From: Hydrogenobacter thermophilus TK-6
GTDB taxonomy: Bacteria; Aquificota; Aquificia; Aquificales; Aquificaceae
Direction of reading: 5' to 3'
Assembly: GCF_000010785.1 (NCBI RefSeq)
Contig: NC_013799.1
Coordinates: 62,001-126,000 of the forward strand
DNA length: 64,000 bases
Below are positions 2,592 to 24,298 of the stretch, one piece after another; positions within the stretch are counted from its first letter, which is position 1; every line of letters begins with the position of its first letter. The notes beneath the pieces are model-generated. The model had not been told where the DNA came from. It saw only the letters and a program-made list of their open reading frames with translations, and did no database searches. The position numbers were made by a program, and so were the translations under genes.

Positions 2592-2663
2592 AGGAGGTAA
2601 AAAACATTTGACGAAAACTGTTAAAAAGTGCACAATAATATTACTAAGGAGCAGAAAAAGAAG

Positions 2664-4310
2664 ATGATAACCTTACATTGTAAACTAACTTTTGAAAACA
2701 ACAAGGACAAAGAAGCACTGATGGATATAATGAGAAAATTCTCATCTTGTTTTAGATACGCCTACAACAAACTACTTGAAGGACACTCAAGAAAAGACCT
2801 TAAAAAACATCTACAAAAAATATTTAACATAAACTCAAGATATGTAGATGACGCAATATTCAAAGCCCAAAGTTTGATTAACTCTTGCATAGCAACATAC
2901 CAAAGCCCAAGTAAAGTAATATTTGGAGGTAGAAGACTATTTGAGCTCCTCAAAAACAAACATATAAACGGAGAAAGAAGAAATAAGCTAAAACAAAAAT
3001 GGGAAGAAAGAAGAAAACACTGCCTATACTCAAGAGGAGACAAAACAAAGAAAGGAAACCTAAACATAAGAATAGAACTTGAAAAAGATAAGCTTACACT
3101 TAGAATAAACACAGGAGATAGAAACTGGATAAAAGCAAACATAAAAAGAACAGCAAACAGACAAAACGATAAATGGATAAATTTCATAGCAGACTTAATA
3201 CGAGCAGAAGAAACAAAAGAGTACTTCCCATACTCAGTAGAGGTAAGAAAGATAGACAACGATTTCTATGCATTTATAAGCTACCAAGACGTAAAGATAG
3301 AAGAACCAACTATAACAAAAGACAATGGAGTAATAGGGATAGACATAAATGCAAGCCCATTTCACATAGCTATGGCAAGTGTAAAAACAGATGGAAATTT
3401 AGAAAAGATAAGAAGAATATCTCTACACCATCTATTAGGCAAGACAAAAAATCAGAGAGAATATCTATCTTGGCAAATAACACATCAGATAACAGATATG
3501 GCTAAGGAAGAGAATAAAGCTATAGCCATAGAAAAATTATCCAACATACCGAAAGGAGAAAGAGGAGATGGCAATGGAAAGCTAAGGAAGAGACTACAGC
3601 AATGGATATACAAAGGTTTGTTAGAGAAAATAAAAACACTTGCTAAAAGAAAACGCATTCAAGTTATAGAAGTAAACCCGGCTTACACATCAGTAATAGG
3701 AGCATTAAAGTATGCACCACAGTATAGTTTAGATAAAGATACAGCAGGAGCATTTGTAATAGGCAGGAAAGCACTGGGATTTAGAGAAGAAATACCTAAG
3801 AACTACGAAAAGCTAATAACAGAGAAGGAGTATTTAAAATTTGCAGAAGAGAGAATAAGACAGGAGAAAGAGAGAACACAAGAGAGTTTAAAAGAAGAGA
3901 AAAACCAGTATAAGAGAAAACCGATACAAAAGAAACTAAAAGAGCTAAACAAAAACTTAAAGATAATCCAAAGCCTTTACAGTGAGCCACAGGCTCAAGA
4001 GCCTGTCAACCGATGGAAGCAGCAGGTGAGAGGCTTGTCTTGGACAAGTTATAAACTGTGGCAAATTGTGAAGGTAGCCCTTGCTATCCCTGTTCTGGGT
4101 AAGTCTCTAAGCAGGGACTTATCACCCTTGAAAGGTATAATAGTTTCAGGGGCTTGGGATAGGGTAGCAAGAAGGTTAGCTCCTGTTTCTTGGGACAGGG
4201 GCTATGGTATGGACAAATACCGCCAGCTGGGGACATGTCCATACCTGAAGGAGGCGGGATACAAATACCCCAGCCCAAAGTGTGGAGTTTTATATCCACG
4301 CTTTGGATAA
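2664..4310 (+). CDS. tnpB: TnpB-like RuvC nuclease (IS200/IS605 accessory type, no zinc ribbon)
   Basis: A 548-aa, Lys-rich protein of the IS605 OrfB/TnpB-related family. The RuvC triad is visible: Asp about 227 in GVIGIDINASPFH (RuvC-I), Glu about 290 in KAIAIEKLSN (RuvC-II), and Asp about 357-359 in YSLDKDTAGAFVIGRKALGF (RuvC-III). Between II and III is EVNPAYTSVIGALKYAP, where classical TnpB has a CxxC zinc ribbon; none is present. Homologs with the NPAYTS...IGRRALGF signature are known as TnpB-related proteins. No TnpA is nearby, so the element is non-autonomous. ATG 2664 follows AAGGAG by 12 nt; an in-frame GTG at 2628 is less likely. The first three quarters are much more AT-rich than the neighbours, while the last 330 bp are GC-rich and strongly folded (see the ncRNA). 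Known TnpBs are RNA-guided DNA nucleases; that activity here is inferred. Confidence 0.88.
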   Translation: MITLHCKLTFENNKDKEALMDIMRKFSSCFRYAYNKLLEGHSRKDLKKHLQKIFNINSRYVDDAIFKAQSLINSCIATYQSPSKVIFGGRRLFELLKNKHINGERRNKLKQKWEERRKHCLYSRGDKTKKGNLNIRIELEKDKLTLRINTGDRNWIKANIKRTANRQNDKWINFIADLIRAEETKEYFPYSVEVRKIDNDFYAFISYQDVKIEEPTITKDNGVIGIDINASPFHIAMASVKTDGNLEKIRRISLHHLLGKTKNQREYLSWQITHQITDMAKEENKAIAIEKLSNIPKGERGDGNGKLRKRLQQWIYKGLLEKIKTLAKRKRIQVIEVNPAYTSVIGALKYAPQYSLDKDTAGAFVIGRKALGFREEIPKNYEKLITEKEYLKFAEERIRQEKERTQESLKEEKNQYKRKPIQKKLKELNKNLKIIQSLYSEPQAQEPVNRWKQQVRGLSWTSYKLWQIVKVALAIPVLGKSLSRDLSPLKGIIVSGAWDRVARRLAPVSWDRGYGMDKYRQLGTCPYLKEAGYKYPSPKCGVLYPRFG

Positions 4311-4316
4311 CCAGGT
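3985..4316 (+). ncRNA. predicted omega/reRNA scaffold within the tnpB 3' end
   Basis: A succession of inverted repeats lies inside the last coding segment: 3989-3996/3999-4006 (8 bp, ACAGGCTC), 4034-4039/4043-4048, 4073-4078/4083-4088, 4097-4105/4116-4127 (bulged), 4177-4186/4195-4204 (10 bp with one G-U), 4206-4215/4236-4245 (10 bp perfect, GGTATGGACA) and 4275-4286/4295-4306 (12 bp with one G-U). The loop 4226-4232 (GCTGGGG) complements 4268-4274 (CCCCAGC), giving a potential pseudoknot, and 4220-4224 complements 4253-4257. GC content jumps relative to the rest of tnpB. TnpB systems are known to process their own mRNA 3' end into the guide RNA. The guide would be the sequence following the last hairpin, from about 4311-4317 onward. 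Confidence 0.72.
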
Positions 4317-4321
4317 TTGCT

Positions 4322-4870
4322 ATGCCAAAGGTGGCTATAATTCTGGTGGATGGTTTTGAAGAGGTTGAAGCAGTAGCTCCTATTGATGTGCTAAGACGCG
4401 CAGGAGTGGAAGTGCTTATAGTTGGGCTCTCCAGAGAGCCTGTGGCAAGCGCAAGAGGTATAAAGATACTGCCCGAGCTGTCAATAGATGAGGTGAATCT
4501 TGAGGAAATAGACATGGTGGTGCTTCCTGGTGGTGCGGAAGGTGTGGAGAACCTCAAAAAGGACAAAAGGGTAGAAGCACTTGTGAAAGCGCTCAAAGAT
4601 AAAGATAAGTATGTTTCAGCCATCTGCGCAGCACCTACTGCTCTTGCATCCTTTGGCGTTCTTGAAGGGAAAAAAGCAACCGTTTATCCATCATTAAAGG
4701 AAGAGATAAAACCAGCGGTATTCGTTGATGATAAGGTGGTGGAGGATGGCAGAGTAATAACAAGTCAGGGACCTGGCACCGCATTGCTTTTTGCTCTTAA
4801 GCTGGCAGAAAAGCTTGCCGGTAAGGATAAAGCTCGTGAAGTAGCTCAAAGGATGCTTATAGATTGGTAA
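4322..4870 (+). CDS. DJ-1/PfpI family protein
   Basis: A 182-aa cytosolic protein of the DJ-1/YajL/ThiJ family (class I glutamine amidotransferase-like fold). MPKVAIILVDGFEEVEAVAPIDVLRRAG carries the conserved Glu (FEEVE), VLPGG the oxyanion loop, and YVSAICAAPTALA the nucleophilic Cys. Members act as glyoxalase III/deglycase or chaperone-like stress proteins; the exact activity here is not provable. The ATG at 4322 is chosen because the family starts there. It has no SD of its own and lies about 12 bp after the end of the TnpB element. The stop and the next start share TAATG (translational coupling). Confidence 0.85.
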   Translation: MPKVAIILVDGFEEVEAVAPIDVLRRAGVEVLIVGLSREPVASARGIKILPELSIDEVNLEEIDMVVLPGGAEGVENLKKDKRVEALVKALKDKDKYVSAICAAPTALASFGVLEGKKATVYPSLKEEIKPAVFVDDKVVEDGRVITSQGPGTALLFALKLAEKLAGKDKAREVAQRMLIDW

Positions 4871-23797: not shown

Positions 23798-24298
23798 CTA
23801 AGAGCTTTTTTCAAAGGTAGTATATTTTATCAGATAGTCGTACATAGAGATATAGGCAAAAAGCACTGCTATCCATAGCATCCATCCACCTAAGGGGCTT
23901 CCTGCCGAGAGTAAGATCAAGCTCAGGAATTCAAAGAAGGTTTTTGTCTTGCCCAGGTATGAGGCCTGCATTGTATAACCTTTCTCCGCACCCATGCTCC
24001 TCAAGAAAGAAACTAAAAGCTCCCTTATTAGCAAAAGAAGAAAAGCTACTGGGTTTATCTGTTGCATGTAAAGAAAGGCAGAAAGTATAGACAGGAAGAA
24101 AATTTTGTCCACCAGAGGGTCAAGGAGAGCACCCCATTTACTTTCCTCTTTGTTCTTTCTTGCTACGCTACCATCCAGCAGGTCCGACAGAGCTCCCAAA
24201 AGTATCAAAACCAAAGCCCACCTTAATTGCCCCAAAATAACAGCATAAAAGGCTGGGAAGGTGATAAGGAACCTCAGAAGGGTTATCAGAGTAGCCAT
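23798..24298 (-). CDS. pgsA: CDP-diacylglycerol--glycerol-3-phosphate 3-phosphatidyltransferase
   Basis: A 166-aa membrane enzyme making phosphatidylglycerol phosphate. The CDP-alcohol phosphotransferase motif is complete: DLLDGSVARKNKEESKWGALLDPLVD (about 40-65), matching D-x2-D-G-x2-A-R-x8-G-x3-D-x3-D. Four to six membrane helices. ATG 24298 (MATLITLLRF) fits the family; it overlaps the upstream ATPase gene by 13 bp. Confidence 0.93.
   Translation of the reverse strand: MATLITLLRFLITFPAFYAVILGQLRWALVLILLGALSDLLDGSVARKNKEESKWGALLDPLVDKIFFLSILSAFLYMQQINPVAFLLLLIRELLVSFLRSMGAEKGYTMQASYLGKTKTFFEFLSLILLSAGSPLGGWMLWIAVLFAYISMYDYLIKYTTFEKSS

What the first reader, a model, noticed from the sequence alone, without database searches (positions are those of the whole stretch)
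3985..4330. TnpB-like gene whose 3' coding end is a dense hairpin array: candidate omega RNA with pseudoknot
Seven inverted repeats occupy the last ~320 bp of the reading frame, including perfect or near-perfect 10-12 bp stems at 4177-4204, 4206-4245 and 4275-4306, and a 7-bp loop-to-downstream complement (4226-4232 with 4268-4274). This segment is GC-rich in an otherwise AT-rich gene, as expected for structured RNA in a thermophile. Known TnpB systems mature their guide RNA from exactly this place. A zinc-ribbon-less TnpB with its own structured guide would be a compact thermophilic RNA-guided nuclease that is little described.
Basis: partly seen in the sequence, partly recalled or inferred. 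Interest (0 to 1): 0.82.

Follow-up and report, generated by a model that had tools for sequence, protein, structure and literature searches.

The report
Transposon guide RNA, also mRNA leader
In heat-loving bacteria, the end of a transposon's DNA-cutter gene also encodes a knotted guide RNA; the transposon lands on ribosome-binding sites, and copies of the knot without the cutter sit just before dozens of essential genes, apparently reused as mRNA leaders.

Summary
Window 3971-4315 is the 3' end of a TnpB ORF (2628-4310) and a real structured RNA (fold z = -6.2). Compensatory changes across relatives support its helices, including the loop-to-downstream pseudoknot 4226-4232/4268-4274 (7/7 pairs change on both sides, 99.4% paired). 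A 367-nt copy elsewhere in the same genome keeps the left end and this RNA but no tnpB.

The element is IS607-type: relatives carry an IS607 serine transposase upstream, and ends recombine at GG. It inserted at the GG of a Shine-Dalgarno sequence; three congeneric genomes show the empty site (e.g. AAGGAGGTTGAAGCATG). Across relatives 48/61 right ends lie 3-14 nt before a start codon, against 11% at random GG. Predicted TAM: AGGAGG. Guide: 4316-~4335.

Beyond the finding, the pseudoknot core (absent from Rfam) also occurs without tnpB, about 38 nt before start codons. One Thermocrinis-like genome without detectable TnpB or IS607 TnpA has 35 copies, including before rpsK, rpoA, tsf, infC and rho. 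An orthologous htpX leader shows 7/9 compensatory P1 pairs, in genomes mostly without TnpB.

Verdict: a new thermophile branch of IS607 OMEGA TnpB whose guide-RNA scaffold appears exapted as an mRNA leader. RNA biogenesis, cleavage and leader function are inferred, not shown.

The parts
2593..2597 (+). GGAGG: Shine-Dalgarno of the interrupted downstream gene, left target flank; with A2592 the predicted TAM AGGAGG
   Evidence: Empty sites in three congeneric genomes read AAGGAGGTTGAAGCATGCC or similar; most full-length copies have GGAGG at this place; an AGGAG TAM was measured for other IS607 TnpBs (PMC11061315)
2598..2627 (+). Left end of the element (TAAAAAACATTTGACG...), consensus TAACAACAGTTG in relatives
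   Evidence: Comparison of left ends; a short left end is kept in the tnpB-less copy L003
2628..4310 (+). tnpB ORF (probable real start ATG 2664); RuvC residues D239, E302, D371 of the 560-aa translation; no zinc ribbon
   Evidence: TIGR01765 7e-21 and TIGR01766 2.6e-17, both above cut-off; alignment A1; AF2 model mean pLDDT 76.5, last 43 aa disordered; fold matches to Cas12f, TnpB and Fanzor
3971..4315 (+). Omega (re) RNA scaffold, overlapping the 3' end of tnpB
   Evidence: Fold z -6.2; covariation; a copy of 3971-4316 at 98% identity stands without tnpB at G000:560991-561332
4080..4171 (+). Long helix 4080-4096/4156-4171 enclosing hairpins 4098-4123 and 4125-4152
   Evidence: Up to 20 of 32 sequences with two-sided changes at a single pair
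4177..4204 (+). Hairpin TAGCTCCTG.../...CAGGGGCTA directly 5' of the core; absent from most solo leaders
   Evidence: compared with solo copies
4206..4245 (+). Core stem P1: 4206-4215 with 4236-4245
   Evidence: own-partner pairing score 8.0 against 4.5 with swapped partners in 55 sequences; 7/9 pairs compensatory in orthologous leaders
4220..4257 (+). Second pairing CCGCC (4220-4224) with GGCGG (4253-4257)
   Evidence: 100% paired; 4 of 5 pairs never vary, the fifth changes CG to GC in 2 of 47 sequences; weaker than the pseudoknot
4226..4274 (+). Pseudoknot: 4226-4232 with 4268-4274
   Evidence: 7/7 pairs with two-sided changes, 99.4% of cells paired
4275..4306 (+). Terminal hairpin before the right end
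4310..4315 (+). Right end ACCAGG with the GG crossover dinucleotide
   Evidence: Conserved (A/T/G)ACCAGG in relatives; GG crossover known for IS607 (PMC4058570, PMC10711439)
4316..4335 (+). Predicted guide TTTGCTATGCCAAAGGTGGC, the start-codon region of the DJ-1/PfpI-like gene (ATG 4322)
   Evidence: Inferred from junction and empty-site comparison and the known IS607 reRNA layout (PMC11061315)

Best explanation
Window 2598-4315 is an IS607-family transposon that has lost its tnpA and keeps tnpB plus a roughly 345-nt omega RNA overlapping the 3' end of the gene. It recombined at the GG of a Shine-Dalgarno sequence between two operon genes. TnpB is expected to bind the scaffold (long helix, hairpin, pseudoknotted P1 core, terminal hairpin, ACCAGG) made from its own mRNA. 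The next ~20 nt, the downstream gene's start, then serve as guide. The empty allele, AGGAGG followed by that start region, is the target; cutting it lets the element be copied back. The core can move or persist without tnpB (L003). In some Aquificaceae such solo cores are fixed before start codons of housekeeping genes, where they most likely act as mRNA leaders for translation or stability, independent of TnpB. Shown: sequence, conserved structure, insertion site, solo copies. Inferred: RNA maturation, guided cleavage, homing, leader function and the direction from omega RNA to leader.
For: TnpB family and fold. IS607 transposase directly upstream of tnpB in the close relative L012, NF033518 202 bits against cut-off 110. 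Structure by covariation. Tail aa 518-560 disordered, so that stretch is not kept for a protein fold. Empty sites at the window locus and at four solo loci. Start codon 3-14 nt after GG in 48/61 right ends against 11% of random GG. tnpB-less copy L003, 98% identical. Core found with TnpB in Aquificota, Firmicutes, Caldisericum and a deltaproteobacterial bin. Solo cores: 77/82 followed by a start codon at median 38 nt, TnpB-linked 59/65 at median 44 nt. 35 solos in G012 with no TnpB or IS607 TnpA found. Orthologous htpX leader with 7/9 compensatory P1 pairs, 8 of its 10 genomes without TnpB. Transitional solos keep parts of the element: L228 the left end, L246 the 4177-4204-type hairpin and ACCAGG.
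Against: No RNA or cleavage data. The Shine-Dalgarno bias could come partly from transposase preference or from selection against other sites. The CCGCC/GGCGG pairing rests on one varying pair in two sequences. Solo leaders of G012 resemble TnpB-linked cores at only 63-88% identity, so direction of descent is not proven. Sub-branches of the same TnpB family lack the core (L114-L117, Ammonifex, Thermus), so it is not essential to every such TnpB.
Confidence: 0.85

Rival explanations
1. The pseudoknot core was originally a host mRNA leader of thermophiles that an IS607 element captured into its right end, so that insertion at a Shine-Dalgarno sequence hands the downstream gene a working leader; its role in the TnpB complex came later.
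For: Solo leaders are numerous and vertically kept in Aquificaceae without TnpB; some TnpB sub-branches have a plain hairpin in place of the core (L114-L117); core-to-start spacing is similar in both classes.
Against: The core is with TnpB in several phyla; relatives of G012 show empty Shine-Dalgarno sites where G012 has the core, so solos arrive by insertion; L228 and L246 carry remnants of transposon ends.
Confidence: 0.2
2. The hairpins are only transposon-end structure, terminators or codon-level conservation of the TnpB C-terminus, not a guide RNA.
For: Transposon ends often contain hairpins; the segment is inside an ORF.
Against: Compensatory changes in all major helices and a pseudoknot; the encoded tail is disordered; the RNA persists where no tnpB exists (L003 and solos); IS607 elements are described as lacking terminal inverted repeats (PMC6188088 abstract).
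Confidence: 0.05
3. The window copy is a dead relic: conserved by descent, no longer expressed or active.
For: tnpA is missing next to tnpB; only two tnpB copies of this type and one tnpB-less copy in the genome; copy L002 shows one in-frame stop in the aligned stretch.
Against: ORF intact with all RuvC residues; the 98% identical L003 shows recent mobility; one IS607 TnpA (44% identity) remains in the genome at 820493-820978.
Confidence: 0.15

Closest known systems
IS607 TnpB with RAGATH-18-derived reRNA (ISFba1; PMC11061315)
   Same: IS607 TnpB, RuvC D/E/D, scaffold at the right end with pseudoknots, guide taken from the flank, TAM AGGAG that matches the Shine-Dalgarno-like flank here
   Different: ISFba1 reRNA lies wholly outside the ORF, contains the Rfam RAGATH-18 motif (not found here) and serves a 387-aa TnpB; here the RNA overlaps the ORF, has a different pseudoknotted core, and the protein is about 550 aa
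ISXfa1 IS607 TnpB (PMC10711439)
   Same: GG crossover, right-flanking nucleotide is part of the scaffold, G-rich TAM (GGG)
   Different: Different RNA; no solo leaders reported in the passages read
ISDra2 TnpB / omega RNA (PMC8612924)
   Same: RNA-guided TnpB with guide read from the right end; processing of own mRNA shown for TnpB in PMC10278001
   Different: IS200/IS605 with Y1 transposase and another TAM; has a zinc finger (own knowledge)
TldR (TnpB-derived RNA-guided transcription factors; PMC13418256)
   Same: TnpB-type guide RNA put to host or phage use
   Different: TldR have lost nuclease residues (own knowledge) and act as proteins; here RuvC residues are intact, and it is the RNA scaffold, without protein, that is retained

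Membership tests
TnpB (OMEGA nuclease) | RuvC catalytic D, E, D | tested here: met
   D239, E302, D371 invariant in 18 homologues
TnpB (OMEGA nuclease) | Family model match | tested here: met
   TIGR01765 and TIGR01766 above cut-off; the whole-protein model NF040570 is below cut-off (49.7 against 100), as expected for a divergent branch
TnpB (OMEGA nuclease) | Zinc ribbon CxxC...CxxC | tested here: not met
   No invariant cysteine in A1; the segment between VNPAYTS and KD is short. The ribbon is common but not universal in the TnpB/Cas12 group (own knowledge), so it is not taken as defining
TnpB (OMEGA nuclease) | Conserved structured RNA at the right end reading into the flank | tested here: met
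   junctions
TnpB (OMEGA nuclease) | RNA-guided DNA cleavage | not testable with these tools
   Needs biochemistry
IS607 family | Serine-recombinase TnpA with MerR-type HTH | tested here: met
   In close relatives (L012: NF033518 202 bits, PF00239); the window copy itself lacks tnpA, so membership is by relatives and ends
IS607 family | GG crossover, no terminal inverted repeats, no target duplication | tested here: met
   Empty-site comparison: AGGAGG | element ACCAGG | TTTGCTATG; ends
IS200/IS605 family | Y1 TnpA next to tnpB, insertion 3' of a TAM such as TTGAT or TTAC | tested here: not met
   Flank is GGAGG and relatives carry a serine TnpA
RAGATH-18 reRNA | Match to the Rfam model | tested here: not met
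   No Rfam match at the element at gathering level; only unrelated weak matches at E up to 10
TldR | RuvC residues lost | tested here: not met
   Residues intact

The most novel reading that the evidence does not exclude
A transposon guide-RNA scaffold has become a host mRNA leader: solo omega-RNA cores, freed from nuclease and transposase, replaced the Shine-Dalgarno regions of tens of housekeeping operons (ribosomal proteins, RNA polymerase alpha, EF-Ts, IF3, Rho) in some Aquificaceae and are kept by selection on their pseudoknotted structure, for translation, mRNA stability or regulation.
Probability: 0.6. Interest if true: 0.87.

Novelty: new variant of a known kind. Interest (0 to 1): 0.75.

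Why it matters
It defines a thermophile branch of IS607 TnpB with its own guide-RNA fold and a predicted Shine-Dalgarno TAM, useful as a compact heat-stable nuclease candidate. It also gives a plausible case of guide RNA being domesticated without its protein, whereas the known cases (TldR) domesticated the protein. A transposon that inserts between Shine-Dalgarno and start codon, brings its own AGG just before the start, and takes the start codon as guide links target choice, low harm to the host and homing in one simple design that can be tested. It also offers a structured leader family absent from Rfam, present in 85 of 136 Aquificota genomes searched (TnpB-linked and solo together).

Tried and rejected
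Rfam scans of the element and of 16 core-bearing loci, mostly solo leaders: no related family. IS200/IS605 assignment: rejected by flanks and TnpA. Codon-only explanation of the hairpins: rejected by solos and the disordered tail. RNAalifold on the long alignment cannot draw P1 together with the pseudoknot and offered small false pairs near 4206-4224 and 4242-4257; P1 was therefore tested per sequence and in orthologues. A first regular expression for the core was too strict and was relaxed; the right-end pattern misses some GGATAACC ends and admits a few chance matches, so 48/61 is approximate. Literature searches found no report of TnpB elements in Shine-Dalgarno sites or of solo omega-RNA leaders; only open-access papers are held, so absence is weak evidence.

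Full report
What is in the window. The window is G000:62001-126000 of a single 1,743,135-bp contig; that size matches Hydrogenobacter thermophilus TK-6 from my own knowledge. ORF 2628-4310 is a TnpB: TIGR01765 (7e-21) and TIGR01766 (2.6e-17) are above cut-off, while the general guided_TnpB model is below cut-off. In 18 homologues the RuvC residues D239, E302 and D371 are invariant and no cysteine is, so the zinc ribbon is missing. The AlphaFold model has mean pLDDT 76.5; residues 518-560 are disordered. Foldseek matches are Cas12f, Cas12k, Fanzor2 and ISFba1 TnpB with E 2e-7 to 2e-4 but low TM-scores, so this supports the superfamily only.

The RNA. Three copies in the genome share the region: the window, L002 (1586127-1587847) and L003 (560991-561332). 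L003 has a short left end, then directly the RNA, with no tnpB; from GG to GG it is 367 nt. It marks the 5' limit of the RNA at about 3971. In an alignment of 32 elements the helices 4082-4096/4156-4169, 4098-4108/4113-4123, 4177-4189/4193-4204 and 4275-4283/4298-4306 are kept through two-sided changes. In 47 core sequences the pseudoknot 4226-4232/4268-4274 has two-sided changes at all seven pairs, with 0 of 500 shuffles as good. P1 (4206-4215/4236-4245) varies freely in sequence but pairs with its own partner: score 8.0 against 4.5 with partners from other sequences. A third pairing, 4220-4224/4253-4257, crosses both; its support is one two-sided change in two sequences.

The transposon. Close relatives carry, directly upstream of tnpB, an IS607 serine transposase (L012 998-1522, NF033518 202 bits against cut-off 110; PF00239). 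The window copy has lost it; one distant IS607 TnpA (44% identity) remains elsewhere in the genome. Left flanks of full-length copies read GGAGG or a close variant followed by TAACAACAGTTG-like sequence; right ends read (A/T/G)ACCAGG. Three congeneric genomes have the empty site of the window locus, e.g. CCTTAAGGAGGTTGAAGCATGCCAAAGG, with the upstream gene in synteny. The filled site is AGAGGAGG|element ACCAGG|TTTGCTATGCCAAAGG. So the element recombined at the GG of the Shine-Dalgarno sequence. This is general: 48 of 61 right ends are followed 3-14 nt later by a start codon of an ORF of 60 codons or more, against 11% of random GG.

Fit to known biology. IS607 elements recombine at GG (PMC4058570). 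In IS607 TnpB the right-flanking nucleotide belongs to the scaffold (PMC10711439). IS607 TnpBs with RAGATH-18 reRNA use TAM AGGAG or GAGGG, with pseudoknots in the RNA that are needed for activity (PMC11061315). The flank here, AGGAGG, is such a TAM and also a Shine-Dalgarno. The predicted guide is therefore the start-codon region of the interrupted gene and the predicted target is the empty allele. These last steps are inference. The RNA does not match RAGATH-18 or any other Rfam family.

Distribution. Relatives of the protein are in thermophiles of several phyla. The core accompanies TnpB in Aquificota, Thermoanaerobacter-type Firmicutes, Caldisericum and a deltaproteobacterial bin, but is missing in some sub-branches, where a simple hairpin stands in its place (L114-L117), and the model found none in the Ammonifex and Thermus genomes.

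Solo cores. A covariance model of the core finds 85 of 136 Aquificota genomes positive, in 23 of 30 genera, counting TnpB-linked and solo copies together. Genome G012 (1,500,577 bp, the size of Thermocrinis albus from memory) has 35 copies and no TnpB or IS607 TnpA found. Among genes judged by translation they precede hfq, rpsT, ndk, rpsK, rpoA, tsf, infC, trxA, nuoB, ppa and others (names are by eye, not by family search). At four of these sites relatives have a plain stop-GGAGG-start junction instead. Over the fetched loci, 77 of 82 solos and 59 of 65 TnpB-linked cores are followed by a start codon within 18-90 nt on the same strand, median 38 and 44 nt; the antisense control is 27/82 and 6/65. 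Some solos keep pieces of the element: L228 a left end after GGAGG, L246 the upstream hairpin and ACCAGG.

Selection on solos. An orthologous leader before htpX in one genus shows P1 with 7 of 9 pairs changed on both sides, 97.8% paired, among 10 genomes. Of these, G076, G021, G014, G078, G082, G033, G081 and G080 have no detectable TnpB, while G079 and G027 do. The structure is thus kept where no TnpB can use it, which argues for a role of its own in the mRNA.

Assessment. The stronger result lies outside its coordinates: the guide-RNA core has a second life as an mRNA leader. I rate the TnpB/omega-RNA identity high (0.85 overall with the Shine-Dalgarno insertion), the exaptation reading at 0.6, and leave the direction of descent open at about 4 to 1 for omega RNA first.

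Limits. Core sets were collected with patterns derived from the same family, which favours conserved forms. No expression data were available. Literature coverage is open access only.

Noticed in passing
L023, L057, L144, L150 (distant TnpB relatives): tnpB genes without the core RNA or the Shine-Dalgarno/ACCAGG ends, bounded instead by terminal inverted repeats of the type AGGCTGTTCGAAAAATCC and 9-11 bp direct repeats of the target, as if tnpB rides in a DDE-type element without its own transposase.
   Followed up: partly
G000:C1:321179-322330 (L004): A second, about 54%-identical TnpB-like gene in the same genome with different ends (TGTTTAAAAATCC-like) and no core RNA.
   Followed up: partly
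G000:C1:1466639-1466708 and 1467224-1467297 (L006): Degraded TnpB element in the same genome whose core has the swapped GCGCC/GGCGC pairing and resembles the Thermocrinis-type solos.
   Followed up: partly
G000:249982-250050, 336842-336911, 23970-24039: Three solo cores in the window's own genome before acpP, an hsp20-like gene and an ATP-cone-like gene.
   Followed up: partly
L077 (G012:844448-845085): Two divergent neighbouring genes (rpmF-like and ilvC-like) each carry their own solo core, back to back.
   Followed up: no
L234 (G012:709327-710514): Two solo cores inside one ribosomal operon, before rpsK and before rpoA, so the leader is not tied to a promoter.
   Followed up: yes
L114-L117: TnpB sub-branch in which the pseudoknot core is replaced by a short simple hairpin (GGCAAGTAGCTTGCC), suggesting the core is an exchangeable module.
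   Followed up: no
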